A stretch of 12,725 nucleotides of DNA, taken from assembly GCA_016839425.1 (NCBI GenBank), contig JAEOUI010000052.1, forward strand, positions 1 to 12,725. Reading direction: 5' to 3'. Made by a program: the position numbers and the translations under genes. The notes beneath the pieces were generated by a model. That model did no database searches, was not told where the DNA came from, and worked only from the letters and a program-made list of their open reading frames with translations. This DNA comes from Promethearchaeota archaeon. GTDB taxonomy: Archaea > Asgardarchaeota > Lokiarchaeia > Sigynarchaeales > SOKP01. Shown piece by piece: positions 99-12,725 of this stretch. How positions within the stretch are numbered: position 1 is the first letter of the stretch; every line of letters begins with the position of its first letter.

Positions 99-1565
99 AT
101 GACTGAAGATAAAGAAAAACTAGAGTACGACTATTCTTTCGACTATATTTCTCGAAAGCTAGAAGGTAAGAAGGATAGTTACGGAATGCTCATGAAGGAG
201 ATCATTAGGACGGGAATTTGCACAGAATGCGGTACTTGCGCTGCAGTATGCCCCGTTTTAGAGTGGGACTCCGCTACGAGTCAGCCTAAGCTAATTGGTA
301 AGTGCACGGGATGCGGCATATGCTATAATCAATGTCCTCGAACGATTACGGATCCTATAGAATTAATGGGGGAATTCAAAACGGGTTACGTAGCAAATAC
401 TAACATTCCAGATGTAATAGGGGGTCAAGATGGAGGTACGGTCGTAAGTATTTTATGTTATTTATTTGACGAGCATTTAATAGATGCGGCCATTGTAACA
501 ATGAAAGATCCCAAGAAACCGTGGTATCCAGTTGCTCAAATTGCTACCTCTAAAGAAGATATTTTAAAGAGCGCAGGTTCAGTTTATGCACATAGTCAAA
601 CAGTAGAGGCCTTAATGGAAGCAATCAGGGCAGATTGTCGATCGATTGCCTTCGTTGGAACGCCATGTAATATAGATGCTGTGGATAAAATGATGAACAG
701 CCCCGCAGGAATGCTTAAATACTTCATGAGGGCACACATCTTAAAGATAGGACTATTTTGTATGGACAGCTTTTCTCCAGAAACCTTATATTCGAGATTT
801 GAAAGCGATGGTATAGATATTTCTAAAATCGTGAAGATGGATATTAACAAGGGGAAATTTCATTTATACGAACAATTAGGTGCAGATCCTGTTAGATCAT
901 ATACAATCGCATCTTTACACAAATATAAATCGTCAAGTTGTAATTTCTGTACGGATCTTACTGCTGAAAATGCTGATATTTCTATAGGTTCAGTTGGGAG
1001 TGGCCCAAACCGAAATACCGTGTTTGCCAGAAGCGGCATTGGAACAGAAATAATTGAGGACGCAGCTAAAAAAGGATATTTAAAGATAGATCCATTCAAC
1101 GCAATTAATTTGAACGCAGTTTTATTCTTGGCTAAGTTAAAGAAAGTTACTCAATATAATATCCAAAAAAGAAAGGTTTTTATTGTGAAAAATGGGGAGG
1201 AACCTCCAAGGATCGGAGCAGAAATTGGACCCCTCACAGACAAAGCAAAGTCTCTCATTGGTACACGAAAAGCACTTAGTTTAAATAAAAAACTAAACGA
1301 AAAAACAAGTAAAGTAAAGGTCACGCTTACCAATACTGTTGGATTTACGCTTGAGAATATGACCGCACGAGTAGCTTTAGTTGAAGACGTATTTGAACAA
1401 AATCCTTGGGTTGCTACTTTAAAGGAATTGTTCCCATACGAAGAATTGGAAATAGATTATCCCGTAAACAAGTTAGAAGGAACAATTCTTGTAGAAGCAT
1501 CTACAGAAGACTACGGAAAAATCTTTTCGAGATCAGTGAAATTTGCCCCTGAGGAGAAAAAATAA
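99..1565 (+). CDS. frhB: FrhB/FdhB-family Fe-S flavoprotein with C-terminal beta-rich domain
   Basis: 488 residues. The protein belongs to the coenzyme F420 hydrogenase/dehydrogenase beta-subunit family, which uses FAD and [4Fe-4S] clusters to pass electrons to or from F420 or a related carrier in the cytoplasm. Two ferredoxin motifs are visible (Cys41/44/47/51 and Cys69/72/75/79). The FrhB core follows: GGQDGGTV near 108-115, GTPC ending at Cys190, FCMDSF at 220-225, DINKGKF at 248-254 and a CNFC pair at 281-284. FrhB proteins usually end near residue 350-400. Here about 85 further residues (403-485) look like alternating beta strands and resemble the C-terminus of the arrestin-like protein encoded at 3786-5048. 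The carrier cannot be told from sequence (F420, NAD(P)H and ferredoxin are all possible). The gene lies 74 bases upstream of the Rag-like GTPase on the same strand and may be cotranscribed with it. No in-frame UGA is present. Confidence 0.9.
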   Translation: MTEDKEKLEYDYSFDYISRKLEGKKDSYGMLMKEIIRTGICTECGTCAAVCPVLEWDSATSQPKLIGKCTGCGICYNQCPRTITDPIELMGEFKTGYVANTNIPDVIGGQDGGTVVSILCYLFDEHLIDAAIVTMKDPKKPWYPVAQIATSKEDILKSAGSVYAHSQTVEALMEAIRADCRSIAFVGTPCNIDAVDKMMNSPAGMLKYFMRAHILKIGLFCMDSFSPETLYSRFESDGIDISKIVKMDINKGKFHLYEQLGADPVRSYTIASLHKYKSSSCNFCTDLTAENADISIGSVGSGPNRNTVFARSGIGTEIIEDAAKKGYLKIDPFNAINLNAVLFLAKLKKVTQYNIQKRKVFIVKNGEEPPRIGAEIGPLTDKAKSLIGTRKALSLNKKLNEKTSKVKVTLTNTVGFTLENMTARVALVEDVFEQNPWVATLKELFPYEELEIDYPVNKLEGTILVEASTEDYGKIFSRSVKFAPEEKK

Positions 1566-5081: not shown

Positions 5082-6578
5082 TTAATATTGCGGAAATCTT
5101 TTATTTGCTGAGATTTTCTCATTTATATGTTTTTTACATGTGTTTCTCTTGATTCCAGCAATTTTTTGAAGCATGGGCAATCCAGGTTTTATATCGTTAA
5201 TGTCCTTAGTTTCTATAAGTCCTTTTTCGATTAATTCGTGATAAAGTTCCTTCCCCTTTTGGGTTCTAATTAAAACCATGTTCCATCCGGGAGGCGCTCC
5301 AATTGAGCCTACAGATATATCTGCCGATTCTGAAGTCAGATCGTAGCAAACTTCACAATCTTCTCTTGCTAAATTGCTAATATCTTTAATTGGAACATTT
5401 AACTCCTCTCCTGAATTTGTATATACAAAAAATTTTCCTTTATTTATATCGGTCTTTTTAACATCCTGCACATTAACTTTTAATATTTCACAGATCTTGA
5501 GAAATCCTTCGTAGGGAAATGACTCCATACAAAAAATACCGATCCTATATTCAATTTTATTTAAAGAGGGAATGCCTATATTATAAACCTTGGATTTTAA
5601 TAAAGCTTGCATTTGGCAGGGAACGCCTACAACAGCTAGCTTTTTGTCCTTTATCTTGCTTTCACTTAATAATTGCAAGTTAGGATTATTTACATATTTT
5701 GTTCCTGCAGCTAGAACAACGCTTTCCTTTTGCGCTATAAGAAAGGGTTCTGGCCGCCAAGGGTCATTGCTTGTCTTAGCACTTAAAGCAGCATCGATCT
5801 TTCCTTGTTCTAAAAGATAATACAAGCAAGTGCTAGAAATACCACCATCTTGGCATACAGCTTTAATTTCAGGAATTTTTGTTTGAGCAATAAATGCTTC
5901 CATAAATGGTCCAACATTTGAATATTCTTTAATATTATCGATTTCAGCTTGATACATATAGAATGATTTAAGAGGCAATGCAGACCGAGGGCATGCAAGA
6001 TAACATAATCCACAACGGATGCAAATATTTTCATCAACACTTCCCGCACCATTCTTGAGAGTTATGCAATTCATGGGGCATATTCCAGAACAAATACCAC
6101 ATCCAGAGCAAATCTCCGAGTGAAAAATAACCTTTACGGGTTCATATACGGATTTGATTTTAGTAAAATCCCCTTTGAAGCAAGTAATCGAAACATCCTT
6201 AAAAATCTTTTTTGATTGACCTTCTTCGCTTGCAGGGGGGATTTCGTCAAATATCTCCGTAATTTGAATTAGATTTTCGCTGTGAAGCATTTGAACAAGA
6301 GAGAACGCTTTTTTAAAGTCCAAAATGTTTTGATCAGAAAACGCTTTAAGTCCAATTAAATCGATAGGTTCATTTTCTTTAAGATATCGTAATAAAGCAT
6401 ATTTCATTTTTTCTTCATCAAACATCTTGAAGAGTATGTCGTAGTAAGTTTTTTCGTCATAAACACCAATTTTTAAGATATCCTCTTTTGCATCAATGAA
6501 AGCTCGTATCCTATACGAATCAAATGTTTCTGCCACGTTTTTTAAAAATTCCCACGTGATTTTTCCTTCTAATGTCAT
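5082..6578 (-). CDS. frhB: FrhB/FdhB-family Fe-S flavoprotein with N-terminal helical extension
   Basis: 498 residues. Residues about 150-470 are a FrhB-type electron-transfer unit: ferredoxin motifs at Cys157/160/163/167 and Cys186/189/192/196, CQDGGISS at 242-249, GVPC ending at Cys321, FCMESF at 349-354, DINKGKF at 377-383 and a Cys408/Cys411 pair. The first 145 residues are additional. They are mainly helical with a strand, and residues 55-115 resemble a winged-helix or helical-bundle domain. The gene follows mvhD on the same strand after 103 bases that contain the SECIS-like element. In Hdr-type complexes an FrhB or FdhB subunit can deliver electrons from F420H2, formate or NAD(P)H to MvhD and then HdrA, and the order hdrA-mvhD-frhB fits that. 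It shares the core with the FrhB-like protein at 99-1565, but the extra domains differ. No in-frame UGA. The carrier is not determined by sequence. Confidence 0.88.
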   Translation of the reverse strand: MTLEGKITWEFLKNVAETFDSYRIRAFIDAKEDILKIGVYDEKTYYDILFKMFDEEKMKYALLRYLKENEPIDLIGLKAFSDQNILDFKKAFSLVQMLHSENLIQITEIFDEIPPASEEGQSKKIFKDVSITCFKGDFTKIKSVYEPVKVIFHSEICSGCGICSGICPMNCITLKNGAGSVDENICIRCGLCYLACPRSALPLKSFYMYQAEIDNIKEYSNVGPFMEAFIAQTKIPEIKAVCQDGGISSTCLYYLLEQGKIDAALSAKTSNDPWRPEPFLIAQKESVVLAAGTKYVNNPNLQLLSESKIKDKKLAVVGVPCQMQALLKSKVYNIGIPSLNKIEYRIGIFCMESFPYEGFLKICEILKVNVQDVKKTDINKGKFFVYTNSGEELNVPIKDISNLAREDCEVCYDLTSESADISVGSIGAPPGWNMVLIRTQKGKELYHELIEKGLIETKDINDIKPGLPMLQKIAGIKRNTCKKHINEKISANKRFPQY

Positions 6579-6616: not shown

Positions 6617-6638
6617 TTTTTCCGAATACTCGGGCCAC

Positions 6639-6688
6639 GAGTCAGTCCCTTTCCAACTATTATTTTATTGGAAAAATCATTCTAATTC
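6639..6688 (-). promoter_or_regulatory. SECIS-like element, eukaryote-type core, overlapping the mvhD stop codon
   Basis: Read on the minus strand from 6688. Helix I is GAATTAG (6688-6682, containing the UAG stop) pairing with CTGACTC (6645-6639) in six of seven positions. The internal loop follows with AATGA on the 5' side and GGGA on the 3' side. Helix II is TTTTTCCAA with TTGGAAAGG, nine pairs including two U-G. The apical loop is the 11-base, A-rich UAAAAUAAUAG. The 5' UGAU and 3' GGAC fit the UGAN/NGAN quartet of tandem sheared G-A pairs that defines eukaryotic SECIS elements, and the loop carries the expected unpaired A run. Lokiarchaeal selenoprotein genes are reported to have such eukaryote-like elements in the 3' region. 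The folding was done by hand. Confidence 0.82.
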
Positions 6689-7113
6689 GGATTGAGTTTA
6701 ACTTTTGGTAGTGGAGGAAGTGCTTGTACTTTTTTCGAGATATCCTCGACTGATCGCACGAAATTTTCTACTTCGGCCGCAGCACAGAAATATTGTTCTA
6801 TTCGATTTTCGCTAATTCCCAAATGAGAAAATAATTTCTTCAAGAACAACACGTGCTTATTCGTATTTATGTTGGCTTGACCATAATCACATTCTCCTTT
6901 ATGGCAAGATATTATAGCTACACCATCGGCACCGTTAAGAAAAGCTTCCATAATAATATGTATTCCAATTCTTCCAGTACATCGAACTCGAACCAAATGA
7001 AAATTTGACGAATACGACTTTCTTGTCGTTCCAGTCAAGTCTGCTGCCGAATATCCTCATTTTTCGCAACCAAATGCAATGATATTTCTTGATTTATCAT
7101 GTATTTCTTCCAT
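6682..7113 (-). CDS. mvhD: MvhD/VhuD-type electron-transfer subunit, selenoprotein (Sec19)
   Basis: 143 residues if the in-frame TGA at 7059-7057 is read as selenocysteine. MvhD carries a [2Fe-2S] cluster that passes electrons from a hydrogenase, formate dehydrogenase or FrhB-type partner into HdrA. The N-terminus reads IIAFGCEKUGYSAAD, matching the family's CxxC-x-Y-x-x-AD pattern with Sec in the second Cys position. Further ligand-type residues are Cys45 in RCTGR, Cys70 and Cys75 in CHKGEC, and Cys110. Without readthrough only a fragment lacking the first motif could be made, from an internal start. The ATG at 7113 is preceded by AGGTG at 7124-7120. hdrA ends 18 bases upstream, so the two are surely cotranscribed. 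The methanogen homologue VhuD is also a known selenoprotein. A SECIS-like element overlaps the stop codon. Confidence 0.92.
7057..7059 (-). other. in-frame UGA read as selenocysteine, MvhD codon 19
   Basis: TGA on the minus strand in frame with the ATG at 7113, within CEKUGYSAAD. The family has Cys at this position (CxxC). Conserved MvhD residues lie on both sides and the frame is kept, so this is recoding and not a broken gene. Confidence 0.92.
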
Positions 7114-7131: not shown

Positions 7132-9138
7132 TTAGTCACTAATCGATTCGTTGATTGGTTTGGACTGATTTATATAATCATCGATCTTGCCAATACCCTT
7201 AATTTCTTCCTCAAATTGTATATCCCTGTAATATTTTAGATCAATCGCTCTAGCAGGACAGGATGTAACACAAGCGCCACATCCCTTACATTTTAAATCA
7301 TCAACGATCGCAATCTCGTTCTCGTCAACTTTAATCGCTCCAAAATCACAAGTCTTTTCGCATCTTTGACATCCCATGCATAAAGATTCGTTCACTTCGG
7401 CAATTATGAGTTCTTGACTTAATGTATCACTGGATAATAAAACAGATACTTTACTAGAAGCACCCAAAGCTGAGGAAACCGAATATGGAATGTTTTTTGG
7501 ACCTGCGGCACAACCACAAATGTAAATTCCTGTATCTTTAGTTTCAACAGGTTTTAAACAACCGTGAACTTCAGAAAGGAAGCCACTGGGCCCCTTGCTT
7601 AAGCCCATAATTTCAGCCAATTCGTAAGTACCTTTTGAAGGTACGATGCCTGTAGAAAGAACAACAAGATCAAAATCCATTGATGTAACTTGATCCTCCA
7701 AAGTATTATCAAAGAAAAGTCGCATTGTCCCATTAGGGTTAAGCTTTATGTCTCCAGGTTTTCCTTTGATGAAAGTAATGTTTTGCCCACGAATATTTCT
7801 GTAATATTCCTCATTTCCCTTGTCCCAAGTCCTAATATCCATATAAAACATCGTAATATCCATATCAGGATATTCTTGTTTTAACAATTGGGAATTTTTC
7901 AACGAAACATTACAACACACGGCAGAACAATATGGATTAGCGTTCAAGCTTCTCGATCCCACGCATTGAATCATTGCAACATTTTTTGGAATATCTCCAT
8001 TAGAAACTCTATAGACATGACCACCGGTTGGACCTATAGGACTTAACATTCTTTCCAATTCTATTTGAGTAATGACATCAGGATAAATTCCGTAGTTATA
8101 CTCATTCGTTTTGATTATTGGATATTCGTCCCAACCAGTAGCAACGATAACAGCCCCAACCGTTACATCGACGATTTGTTCCTCTTGATCAAATAAAATT
8201 GCCTCTGCTGGACAAGCTCGCTCACAAGCCTTACAGCCTATACAAGACGACTTATCGATGACAGCATATTTTGGTACGGCTTGAGGAAAAGGTATGTAAA
8301 TTGCACCTCGTTCCCCAATACCCCTATCAAATTCGTTTGGCATTTTTACTGGGCACTTTGTTGTGCATAATCCACATCCTGTACACTTGCTCTCGTCTAT
8401 ATATCGAGGATTCTTGCGAATTTTAACTTTATAATCTCCCGTAATTCCTTTAAATTCAATAATATCGCTATAGGTAAAGAGATTAATGTTTGGATGCTTG
8501 GCGGCATTTACCATTATTGGAGCCAAGACTCATATTCCACAATCATCAGTTGGAAAAATTCGATCTAACTGTGCCATTTTTCCTCCAATTGTCGCCTCTT
8601 TCTCAACTAAATAGACTTCAATTCCTTGCGATGCCAAGTCTAATGCAGCATTCATTCCAGCGATACCTGCACCAGCGACTAAGGCAGCTTTTTTAAGTGG
8701 GATTTCTTTTCTCGGTACCGATTCTAATTGTCTTGATCGATTAATGCCAGCTAATAATAATCTTTTGGCTTTTTCAGTCGCTCCTTTTTTATCACCTTGA
8801 TGAACAAACGAACAATGTTCTCGCATGTTTACCATTTGAAAATAATAAGGACTTAATCCCGCTTCCATTAAGACCGCACGATATGTAGGTTCGTGAATTT
8901 TAGGTGTACACGCAGCCACGACGATTCTATTTAGTCCCAATTCAAGAATATCGTTTTTAATTTGTTGTTGCCCTGGATCACTACAAGTAAACTTGTTCAT
9001 CCTAGCAACAACAACATTTGGTAAAGGTTCGGCAAATTCTCTCAGTTCAACGCAATCAACATGTAGTCCGATGTTAACACCTCACTCACACACGTAAACT
9101 CCGATTCTCACATTATTAATGGTCTGATTTTCAGACAT
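7132..9138 (-). CDS. hdrA: HdrA, heterodisulfide reductase flavin-bifurcating subunit with two selenocysteines
   Basis: 668 residues when two in-frame TGA codons (9084-9082 and 8532-8530) are read as Sec19 and Sec203. HdrA is the cytoplasmic FAD subunit that splits electron pairs between ferredoxin and a disulfide via HdrBC. N-terminal domain: VYVCEUGVNIG (14-24), CSDPGQ from Cys52, ACTPK with Cys77, and REHC ending at Cys109. FAD/NAD fold: GAGIAG at 156-161. Sec203 lies in FPTDDCGIUVLAPIMV, a position where methanogen HdrA carries Cys or Sec. Ferredoxin motifs follow at Cys252/255/258/262, Cys299/302/305/309, Cys587/590/593/597 and Cys617/620/623/627. Cys392 and YCSAVCC (403-409) match the FAD-near cluster. 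Length is normal for the family. The start has an AGGTG Shine-Dalgarno. mvhD follows 18 bases later. HdrB and HdrC are not in the window. No separate SECIS was found near the hdrA stop. Confidence 0.93.
8530..8532 (-). other. in-frame UGA read as selenocysteine, HdrA codon 203
   Basis: TGA in frame between conserved DDCGI and VLAPIMV. In relatives the residue is Cys, or Sec in some methanogens. Reading resumes immediately and stays open for 465 codons with all expected Fe-S motifs. Confidence 0.93.
9082..9084 (-). other. in-frame UGA read as selenocysteine, HdrA codon 19
   Basis: TGA in frame within VYVCEUGVNIG. HdrA proteins typically have a C-x-C pair here (VYVCHCG type), so the second Cys is replaced. 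Upstream codons back to the ATG at 9138 keep the family's start. Downstream codons continue into LPNVVVARMNKFTCSDPG, again as in the family. Confidence 0.9.
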
Positions 9139-10349: not shown

Positions 10350-10583
10350 ATGGCAGTAAACAAGGATAAAGTAAAAGAAGTTCTGGAAAAAATTCGTCCA
10401 TCCTTGCAACGAGACGGTGGAGACGTGGAATTAGTAAACATCACGGATGACGGAATCGTTCAAGTGCGATTACAAGGCCATTGTGCGGGATGCGCACACG
10501 CTCAGATGACCCTTAAGATGGGGATCGAGAGAGCAATCCAACAATTTGTTCCAGAAGTAAAATCTGTAGAAAATGTTTTCTAA
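10350..10583 (+). CDS. NifU C-terminal-domain (Nfu-type) Fe-S cluster carrier
   Basis: 77 residues, a stand-alone Nfu domain. It binds or transfers a [4Fe-4S] cluster through the CxxC pair at Cys45 and Cys48 in GHCAGCAHAQMTLK, working as a dimer in the cytoplasm. Other family marks are IRPSLQRDGGDVEL (15-28) and the ending PEVKSVENVF. The length is normal for archaeal and bacterial single-domain Nfu proteins. The window encodes many Fe-S proteins (HdrA, MvhD, two FrhB-like proteins, a radical SAM enzyme) that would need such a carrier, although no direct link is shown. Transcription probably starts at the ATG. Confidence 0.9.
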   Translation: MAVNKDKVKEVLEKIRPSLQRDGGDVELVNITDDGIVQVRLQGHCAGCAHAQMTLKMGIERAIQQFVPEVKSVENVF

Positions 10584-11344: not shown

Positions 11345-11383
11345 TAATTTACATTGTATTTCATGTTTTTGTAATTTACATTG
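11345..11383 (+). repeat. 12-base direct repeat ending at the radical SAM start codon
   Basis: TAATTTACATTG occurs at 11345-11356 and again at 11372-11383, 27 bases apart. The last three bases of the second copy are the TTG start of the radical SAM gene. Perfect spacing of two copies at a start codon suggests a protein or RNA-binding site, but duplication by slippage is equally possible. Confidence 0.5.
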
Positions 11384-12725
11384 AAAAGCTACGATGTTAT
11401 ATTCATCCATCCACCAAAAAACATCTTGGAACATAAAAATAAGAGCCCTCGGTTTGCCCGAGGGAATTACATTTTCGTTCCAATGGGTACATTCGCAATT
11501 GCAGATCTCTTAGAACGAGAGGGATTTAGCGTTAAAGTCATTAATTACCCTTTCGAAAAAATCTTAGATCCAACATGGGATTTACAGAAATATCTCAAGA
11601 GATTCAATTTTGATGTATGTGGTATAGACTTACATTGGTTACATAATTCGTTTGGTGTAATAGAAGTTGCAAAAATTGTCAAGAAAGTTAATCCAAACGC
11701 TAAGATTCTTCTCGGGGGTTTTAGCGCTTCTTATTATCACGATGAACTTTTGAGAAACTTTAAAATCATTGATGGAATCATCAGAGGAGAAGGAGAAATT
11801 CCCTTTTTACAATACCTTCGGGAATTTAAAAAAGAAAATGGTTTGGAGAGCGTTCAGAATTTAACGTATAAAAATACCACTAGAAGTATAAAAATAAATC
11901 CCTTATCATATTGTGCCAAGAGTTTGGATCATCTTAATTTTACGAATTTCTCATTTTTAGAACACGCAAGGGAATACATCGAATCATGCAAAAAGATAAT
12001 GGGAATTCCCTTCAATTTATCGATTGGGAGGGGTTGTCCTTTTAATTGCCCCTTTTGTTCTGGTGGACAACAATCACAAAAGAGATTAACCGGTCGCACG
12101 AGCGTCCTTTTAAGAAATCCTAAAAGCGTTCTAGACGATATATGTACTATAGTTGATGATTATAGAGTAGAAAGCGTTTTTTTTGGGCACGGGACTTATC
12201 CTGCCAGTTTTAAATATTGGAAAGAATTGTTTGAATTAATTAAGAAAGAAAATTTAGATATAGGCGGGGATATTGAAATTTGGAGGCTACCTTTTCCTAA
12301 AAATATGTGGAAACTATATTATAACACATTTACACAACAAAGCTCTTCATTAAGCATTTCTCCTCGAACATTATCCCAAAAAGTTCAGAACAAAATAGCA
12401 AAGATATGCGATCCAACATTTCAATTCCCAGAAAATCAGATTAACGACTTAATCAAGAACGCAAATTTTTACGGCTTGACTTTAAGAATTTGGTTGACTA
12501 TTGGTTATCCATTTCAAACATTAAAAGATATAATGAGAGATTTCTATTTTACTTACAAGTGCTTTTGGAAATATGGTTTAAAAAAATCAAATTCTATCAC
12601 ATTTATGAACGAACCATATTATATATTCCCTAGTTCTCCCGTACACGAGTCTCCTGAAAAATTTGGGTTAAAATTAAAATATAAATCATATTTAGAAGTA
12701 ATGAACGCCTTTAAACACTCAAAAA
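11381..12725 (+). CDS. B12-binding radical SAM protein, 5' part (runs off the window)
   Basis: 448 codons are visible with no stop before the window end. The N-terminus reads SYDVIFIHPPKN and VPMGTFAIADLLEREGF, then LLGGFSASYY and IIRGEGE, matching the cobalamin-binding domain of class B radical SAM enzymes. The SAM [4Fe-4S] motif CPFNCPFC is at Cys219/223/226, in GRGCPFNCPFCSGG. Later elements include VESVFFGHGTYP and LTIGYPFQT, typical of the barrel. Members of this group methylate or rearrange substrates (BchE, P-methylase, hopanoid and lipid enzymes); the substrate cannot be told. The frame upstream is closed by TAA at 11372-11374 and no ATG or GTG lies between it and the conserved text, so TTG at 11381 is the only standard start. 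An ATG at 11394 is in another frame and closes early. The next in-frame ATG (11483) would remove the first part of the cobalamin domain. Confidence 0.85.
   Translation, partial: MKSYDVIFIHPPKNILEHKNKSPRFARGNYIFVPMGTFAIADLLEREGFSVKVINYPFEKILDPTWDLQKYLKRFNFDVCGIDLHWLHNSFGVIEVAKIVKKVNPNAKILLGGFSASYYHDELLRNFKIIDGIIRGEGEIPFLQYLREFKKENGLESVQNLTYKNTTRSIKINPLSYCAKSLDHLNFTNFSFLEHAREYIESCKKIMGIPFNLSIGRGCPFNCPFCSGGQQSQKRLTGRTSVLLRNPKSVLDDICTIVDDYRVESVFFGHGTYPASFKYWKELFELIKKENLDIGGDIEIWRLPFPKNMWKLYYNTFTQQSSSLSISPRTLSQKVQNKIAKICDPTFQFPENQINDLIKNANFYGLTLRIWLTIGYPFQTLKDIMRDFYFTYKCFWKYGLKKSNSITFMNEPYYIFPSSPVHESPEKFGLKLKYKSYLEVMNAFKHSK

What the first reader, a model, noticed from the sequence alone, without database searches (positions are those of the whole stretch)
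6639..6688. Eukaryote-type SECIS core overlapping the mvhD stop codon
On the minus strand the stem carries 5' AUGAU and 3' GGAC around an internal loop, a 9-pair helix II and an A-rich 11-base apical loop. This is the UGAN/NGAN quartet of eukaryotic SECIS elements and not the classic archaeal form with GC-rich tip. Helix I uses the UAG stop codon and preceding bases, so coding sequence and recoding signal overlap. This supports descent of eukaryotic SECIS from an Asgard-type element.
Basis: partly seen in the sequence, partly recalled or inferred. Interest (0 to 1): 0.85.

Follow-up and report, generated by a model that had tools for sequence, protein, structure and literature searches.

The report
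Asgard selenocysteine signal with third hairpin
At the end of two linked hydrogenase-related genes of a Lokiarchaeon lies an RNA signal of the kind that makes ribosomes read UGA stop codons as selenocysteine; its eukaryote-like core was already known from such archaea, but comparison of many genomes shows that it is part of a larger three-armed RNA fold that also follows genes not yet recognised as selenoproteins.

Summary
Observation partly confirmed. Behind vhuD/mvhD on the minus strand lies a SECIS with eukaryote-type core (AUGA_GA), an 8-bp helix II and an A-rich 11-nt loop; its hdrA-vhuD operon holds three in-frame UGA codons. The kind is known: eSECIS-like elements shared by hdrA-frhD are published for Asgard archaea (Huang 2024). 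The closing helix is instead UCCGAA/UUCGGA (6691-6686 with 6626-6621), and a third hairpin (6642-6628) lies between, so the element (6618-6694) is a three-way junction with kink-turn geometry. Support: 51 orthologous elements, 51 distinct further elements in which all 21 pairs change on both sides, and 19 outside the class. A model built without the window gives it 71 bits and hits 81 of 227 relatives, 76 of which carry SepSecS. The texts I could read do not describe the third hairpin; Mariotti 2016 was not available. The model also marks candidate new selenoproteins, among them a family with two adjacent UGA codons. Not shown: Sec insertion itself, protein partners, descent of the eukaryotic SECIS.

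The parts
6618..6694 (-). whole SECIS element as modelled (77 nt), a three-way junction
   Evidence: A1 and counts; R2 71.3 bits, E 5e-15
6686..6691 (-). P1, 5' strand (UCCGAA), in the last sense codons of vhuD
   Evidence: P1 covariation in further elements
6621..6626 (-). P1, 3' strand (UUCGGA)
6682..6684 (-). stop codon UAG of vhuD = 5' strand of the short C-stem (P1a)
6643..6645 (-). C-stem, 3' strand (CUG)
6676..6681 (-). three-base bulge AAU (6681-6679), then GA (6678-6677) and U6676: 5' side of the kink-turn core
   Evidence: geometry counts
6646..6648 (-). 3' side of the core: G6648, then GA (6647-6646)
6668..6675 (-). helix II (P2), 5' strand UUUUCCAA
   Evidence: 8 of 8 pairs with changes on both sides
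6657..6667 (-). apical loop UAAAAUAAUAG
   Evidence: AAA in the loop in 48 of 48, 51 of 51 and 19 of 19 distinct rows
6649..6656 (-). helix II (P2), 3' strand UUGGAAAG
6628..6642 (-). third hairpin P3 (ACUCG-UGGCC-CGAGU), GC in the loop
   Evidence: P3 covariation in further elements
6682..7113 (-). vhuD/mvhD; UGA codon 19 at 7059-7057
   Evidence: PF02662 FlpD 1.4e-37
7132..9138 (-). hdrA; UGA codons 19 (9084-9082) and 203 (8532-8530)

Best explanation
The element is the shared SECIS of the hdrA-vhuD operon. It is a three-way junction: P1 (UCCGAA/UUCGGA) closes it; the stop codon UAG with CUG forms a short C-stem; a three-base bulge AAU and tandem G-A/A-G pairs make a kink-turn that leads into helix II with its A-rich loop; a third hairpin P3 with GC in its loop lies between the C-stem and the 3' strand of P1. 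A kink-turn-binding protein (most likely L7Ae, because no SBP2 is known in archaea) and the Sec elongation factor would recognise it, so that Sec-tRNA reads the two UGA codons of hdrA and the one of vhuD, up to 2.4 kb upstream; a ribosome that reaches UAG would melt P1 and the C-stem and terminate. Shown: presence, structure by covariation, kink-turn geometry, association with UGA-type vhuD genes and with SepSecS. Inferred: the protein partners, Sec insertion itself, one element serving all UGA codons, and the melting step.
For: Same RNA behind all 51 vhuD orthologues taken. Structure counts on A1 and on 51 distinct rows outside A1: 93.0% of cells paired, all 21 pairs with both-side changes, covariation 0.727 against 0.189 in shuffles and at most 0.148 when slid; P1 alone 0.629/0.137, P3 alone 0.515/0.116, C-stem alone 0.432/0.204. 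Kink-turn spacing in 47 of 48, 48 of 51 and 19 of 19 distinct rows. R2 at E<=1 with default filters: 26 of 35 UGA-type loci, 0 of 13 loci whose VhuD-like frame has no UGA. 76 of 81 R2-positive genomes have SepSecS over cut-off. UGA kept in hdrA in 20 of 20 N-terminal and 49 of 49 middle motifs found in 51 loci.
Against: No experiment. A2 and A3 are fitted to a model, which favours the structure; RNAalifold on A1 by itself predicted helix II only. The third C-stem pair is unpaired in 13 of 46 (A1) and 22 of 47 (A2) cells. L040, a UGA-type orthologue, has a broken core (AUGC). 54 of the 130 SepSecS genomes have no R2 match, and five UGA-type loci (L167-L169, L171, L173) have none even at E<=1. 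tRNA-Sec over cut-off in only 71 of 227 genomes; the window's own genome is not held.
Confidence: 0.88

Rival explanations
1. It is a two-stem eSECIS-like element as in the published model (lower stem, core, upper stem, loop); P3 and the CCGAA/UUCGG helix are a separate feature, such as a processing or termination signal that merely lies next to it.
For: The published model text has no third hairpin; RNAalifold on A1 predicts helix II only.
Against: P1 brackets core and P3, and P1 and P3 covary and travel with the core behind unrelated genes and outside the class.
Confidence: 0.08
2. It is a kink-turn bound by L7Ae that regulates the mRNA (stability or translation), and the UGA codons are read by some other signal.
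For: Kink-turn geometry; L7Ae as an mRNA regulator in archaea is published (PMC5539422, search listing and start of abstract only).
Against: The element follows UGA-type and not UGA-less vhuD loci (26 of 35 against 0 of 13), and known Sec families of other kinds (61 of 113 places).
Confidence: 0.03
3. It is a chance hairpin; the reader saw a pattern that is common in AT-rich sequence.
For: The 71-nt piece folds no better than shuffles; the loose pattern is at chance level.
Against: Conservation and covariation and R2 E 5e-15.
Confidence: 0.01

Closest known systems
Asgard archaeal eSECIS-like element, type I, of hdrA-frhD (Huang et al. 2024, PMC11227280; first report Mariotti et al. 2016, not held, known to me by citation and recall)
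   Same: GA_[G/A]A core, upper stem of 7-15 bp, apical loop of 8-20 nt rich in A, close behind frhD and shared with hdrA
   Different: Closing helix P1 outside a short C-stem, and a third hairpin P3 with GC in its loop; neither is in the model text that I read. The supplements were not read.
Eukaryotic SECIS, form 1 (features and recall)
   Same: AUGA ... GA quartet at the base of helix II, unpaired A in the apical loop, position 3' of the Sec codons
   Different: Short helix II, third hairpin, 5' strand inside or next to the stop codon, three UGA codons in two cistrons, no Rfam match, no SBP2 reported in Asgard archaea
Euryarchaeal SECIS (eaSECIS) of Methanococcales and Methanopyrus
   Same: 3' position; hdrA and frhD eaSECIS elements also carry [A/G]UGA_[G/A]A according to Huang et al.
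   Different: No GAA_A bulge with three consecutive S-S pairs seen here
Kink-turn of the Kt-7 kind (recalled)
   Same: Three-base bulge, tandem G-A/A-G (or A-A), other strand continuous into the closing pair of the C-stem
   Different: Binding by L7Ae not tested; C-stem of two to three pairs

Membership tests
Asgard eSECIS-like type I (Huang 2024 model) | 5'-GA_[G/A]A-3' core | tested here: met
   GA at 6678-6677, GA at 6647-6646; U-GA with [G/A]A in 46 of 48, 51 of 51, 18 of 19 distinct rows
Asgard eSECIS-like type I (Huang 2024 model) | upper stem 7-15 bp with at most 2 mismatches, apical loop 8-20 nt | tested here: met
   8 bp, 11 nt
Asgard eSECIS-like type I (Huang 2024 model) | within 30 nt upstream to 600 nt downstream of the gene's 3' end; energy below -5 kcal/mol | tested here: met
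   element starts 12 nt upstream of the last base of the stop codon; -18.4 kcal/mol
Asgard eSECIS-like type I (Huang 2024 model) | belongs to a gene with in-frame UGA at a Sec position | tested here: met
   hdrA codons 19 and 203, vhuD codon 19; Sec itself not shown
Eukaryotic SECIS | AUGA ... GA quartet and unpaired A in the apical loop | tested here: met
Eukaryotic SECIS | recognised by the Rfam SECIS models | tested here: not met
   no match of the element to any Rfam 15 family at E<=5
Eukaryotic SECIS | bound by SBP2 | not testable with these tools
   no SBP2 homologue in Asgard archaea according to Huang et al.; PF01248 gives two genes in 18 of 20 genomes chosen, Sec users or not
[quoted passage not shown]
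   by inspection: helix II has two adjacent C-G pairs and the core is AUGA_GA
Kink-turn (Kt-7 type) | three-base bulge, tandem GA, continuous other strand, paired C-stem | tested here: met
   47 of 48, 48 of 51, 19 of 19 distinct rows; closing pair G-C or A-U in 117 of 118
Kink-turn (Kt-7 type) | binds L7Ae and kinks | not testable with these tools
   needs an experiment

The most novel reading that the evidence does not exclude
The Asgard SECIS is at heart a three-way-junction RNA (kink-turn arm plus a third GC-loop hairpin, closed by a helix that can reach into the reading frame), and a model of it uncovers a hidden selenoproteome: a family with two adjacent selenocysteines, membrane mini-proteins with selenocysteine behind or between the helices, and HesB-like and zinc-ribbon proteins; the eukaryotic two-stem form would then be the reduced one.
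Probability: 0.5. Interest if true: 0.78.

Novelty: new variant of a known kind. Interest (0 to 1): 0.62.

Why it matters
[quoted passage not shown] Following the third arm through Asgard groups, methanogens and eukaryotes could show whether the eukaryotic form lost it.

Tried and rejected
Rfam: two matches at E 4 and 4.9, far below their gathering scores and elsewhere in the window; taken as chance. Single-sequence folding as proof: too weak. Published loose pattern as proof: at chance level. tRNA-Sec by RF01852 as marker of Sec use: at E<=0.001 it rings in all 14 control genomes (over cut-off in 5), and the single-contig Lokiarchaeia genome G043 stays below cut-off (38.2 of 47 bits), so SepSecS was used. 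An extra L7Ae-family gene as SBP2 substitute: PF01248 finds two genes in 18 of 20 genomes chosen, three in G091, one in G132. PSTK model TIGR03574: over cut-off in 0 of 20 genomes, but E 5e-37 to 8e-57 in 12 of the 13 Sec users chosen (not in G185) against 3e-12 or weaker in the 7 others. EFSec was not searched. Mariotti 2016 could not be read; whether it shows the third hairpin is unknown to me. G047 has its vhuD split over two contigs and was left out of A1; three regions cut short by my script (L039, L045, L047) were lengthened by hand for A1. Protein structure prediction and scans of viral contigs were not used.

Full report
What is there. The closest relative found in the genome collection is a contig of Candidatus Lokiarchaeota archaeon Zod_Metabat.1389 (L001), 91% identical in VhuD and the only hit of that scan. 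On the minus strand an hdrA-vhuD operon runs from 9138 to 6682. hdrA has in-frame UGA at codons 19 and 203, vhuD at codon 19; VhuD is FlpD (PF02662, 1.4e-37).

Check of the observation. Core, helix II and loop are as described. Alone they prove little: the 71-nt piece folds no better than shuffles (z -0.61), and the published loose pattern matches 363 times in this window against 340 in shuffles. AUGA with a perfect stem in the 210 nt around the vhuD end occurs in 1 of 500 shuffles. No Rfam family matches the element.

Comparison. The window's own genome is not held, so I used the class of its relative: 83 genomes, all with VhuD-like proteins, often several. From 50 of them I took the best match, 59% or more identical by tblastn (L001, L011-L059), plus the window. 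All 51 gave a region between the two anchors of my script. Alignment A1 has UCGG, the G of the core and most of its neighbours invariant or nearly so. One row, L040, has AUGC in place of AUGA.

Structure. A closing helix CCGAA/UUCGG and a third hairpin are supported on A1 (88% and 91% of cells paired), although in A1 P1 changes on both sides at one pair only and RNAalifold alone predicted helix II only. Some rows are shifted by one column in P1. I therefore sought independent elements. Model R1 from A1 matched 69 of 227 genomes of the phylum, all in the class. Fifty-four matches outside A1 (51 distinct; nine score as high as orthologues) form A2: all 21 pairs show both-side changes, 93.0% of cells pair, covariation 0.727 against 0.189 in shuffles and at most 0.148 when slid. 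P1 alone gives 0.629 against 0.137, P3 alone 0.515 against 0.116, the C-stem alone 0.432 against 0.204. Examples: P1 UCUGAA/UUCAGA in L083, AACUUGAG/CUCAAGUU in L105, AUGGACAA/UUGUCCAU in L121. A2 is fitted to the model, which favours the structure. Folded alone, the window's 77 nt and six of nine other elements show P1, P2 and P3 unprompted; L105 and L121 show them with extra pairs; L023 folds otherwise.

Kink-turn. In 47 of 48, 48 of 51 and 19 of 19 distinct rows of A1, A2 and A3, three bases separate the C-stem from GA and the other strand runs on from [G/A]A into the closing base; three A2 rows have one base more before helix II. The closing pair is G-C in 110 rows, A-U in 7, U-U in 1. This is the geometry of a Kt-7 kink-turn (recalled); in the window the stop codon is one strand of its C-stem.

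Coding overlap. In the window the 5' strand of P1 lies in the codons before UAG. In nine orthologues (L017-L019, L021, L025, L030, L032, L046, L050) a TAA stands before it, so it is not translated; in L036 and L037 it is read in another frame. The RNA is kept all the same, so selection acts on the RNA. In L026, L027, L036 and L037 the stop is the UGA of the core itself, as reported for other Lokiarchaeia genes.

Association. R2 was built from A2, without the window or A1 rows, though the members of A2 were found with R1. At E<=1, default filters, 26 of 35 UGA-type loci match and 0 of 13 loci whose VhuD-like frame has no UGA. Missed are L149, L151, L165, L166 (found with filters off, the last three at E 0.17 to 0.38) and L167-L169, L171, L173. 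In 227 genomes R2 matches 81 at E<=0.01: 76 of the 83 in the class and G161, G175-G178. SepSecS is over cut-off in 130; 76 of the 81 have it, the others being G006, G012, G069 (a fragment), G070 and G072. Against generality, 54 SepSecS genomes have no R2 match, among them most of G180-G225.

Outside the class. I fetched 20 vhuD loci that searches flagged with TGA (not all of those flagged); 19 are UGA-type. All 19 align to the junction, four of them with E above 0.01: covariation 0.721 against 0.184. The P3 loop has GC or GU in 19 of 19.

Mechanism. The element would act for ribosomes still upstream, at UGA codons up to 2.4 kb away in two cistrons; a ribosome at UAG would melt P1 and the C-stem. 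hdrA keeps UGA in 20 of 20 N-terminal and 49 of 49 middle motifs that were found in 51 loci. L7Ae is the likeliest core binder: no SBP2 is reported, and PF01248 shows no extra family member in Sec users. These steps are inference.

What else the model finds. In 12 class genomes R2 gives 112 matches at E<=0.01, 107 below 1e-5. I labelled 113 places (50, E<=1 with R1, and 63 more; L040 left out) by tblastn of reference proteins, upstream end within 400 nt: VhuD 29, VhuU 14, Prx-like 11, HdrA 6, SelD 1, together 61 in known Sec families; an adjacent-UGA family 14; other small frames 11, mostly matched by their own sequence; none 27, including L135 and L136, whose R1 matches are not significant. 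In-frame UGA was seen by eye in many and not verified in each. The adjacent-UGA family has no Pfam match. Thirteen of its 14 members align through and past the pair (the script asked for UU, L245 was not resolved). Of 72 database relatives I read nine: five end right before the pair, four have WW there, as a caller that reads UGA as Trp would give; their DNA was not seen; none of the nine has Cys there. The remaining candidates are listed under noticed in passing.

Known or new. Of Huang et al. 2024 I read the abstract, passages and sections 7, 8, 14 and 16: eSECIS-like structures in 1224 of 1439 Asgard selenoprotein genes, shared by hdrA and frhD, cores AUGA_GA and AUGA_AA, seven families; no third hairpin in that text. 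Passages of PMC13188914, PMC9723677 and PMC11291895 add none. Searches for SECIS with three-way junction, with kink-turn and L7Ae and for Asgard with novel selenoprotein gave listings in which I saw nothing on it. Mariotti 2016 and the supplements were not read. So the element belongs to a known kind and has an architecture that I could not find described.

Noticed in passing
L115, L120, L122, L113, L126, L229, L230, L231, L233, L234, L237, L239, L240: Candidate new selenoprotein family of about 150 residues with two adjacent UGA codons (GCUUEK, ADUUAD, UGUU) and a conserved tail (..GK..FAHYFK), always before an R1 or R2 match; no Pfam hit; nine database relatives read end before the pair or have WW there.
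   Followed up: partly
L100, L097, L099, L195, L191, L201, L106, L121, L211, L118, L132, L103, L109, L212: Small frames with one hydrophobic helix followed by a Gly/Asp-rich stretch and UGA (GGUGC, GGUAC, GTUPG, DCFUH); some share an N-terminal ELRKGKIKK. They recall eukaryotic SELENOK/SELENOS in layout only (recall).
   Followed up: partly
L096, L105, L114, L117, L198, L204, L125: Small frames with two hydrophobic helices and UGA in the loop between them (AUGT, AUGR, SUGE); L096 and L105 are a tandem pair 468 nt apart, each with its own element.
   Followed up: partly
L244, L226, L220, L236, L134, L235: Frames that look HesB/IscA-like by eye (LAIY..RSUSR..C, SIUGTGG) with UGA at the Cys position; HesB-like selenoproteins are listed for archaea in a review table, not among Huang's Asgard families. 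Family by recall, not searched.
   Followed up: no
L123, L192, L243, L232: Mini zinc-ribbon frames ending in KU-stop (L123, L192, L243) and a frame with HRUPUIFCSYGDTPU (L232), which recalls the GDCCVxC proteins. A tandem stop UGA-TAA is the plain alternative for the first three.
   Followed up: no
window 9084-9082; 20 of 51 orthologous loci: HdrA has a second UGA near its N-terminus (VCEUGVNI) besides the DCGIU one; it is U in all 20 loci where the motif was found.
   Followed up: yes
window vhuD codon 70: 45 of the 51 vhuD orthologues have a second UGA (ISUHKGEC in L001); the window, L011-L014 and L040 do not; the window has Cys there.
   Followed up: partly
L040 (G024): UGA-type vhuD whose element keeps P1, P2 and P3 but has AUGC instead of AUGA, and whose reading frame runs on into the element to a later TAA; decayed element or sequence error.
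   Followed up: no
G180-G225: Genomes with SepSecS and often tRNA-Sec over cut-off, mostly UGA-less vhuD and no R2 match; their SECIS must differ or follow other genes.
   Followed up: no
window 99-1565, 1640-2548, 5082-6578, 10350-10583, 11381-12724: Other frames look like two FrhB-type iron-sulfur proteins, a Ras-superfamily GTPase, a NifU-like domain and a B12-binding radical SAM protein (from the sequence and recall; not searched).
   Followed up: no
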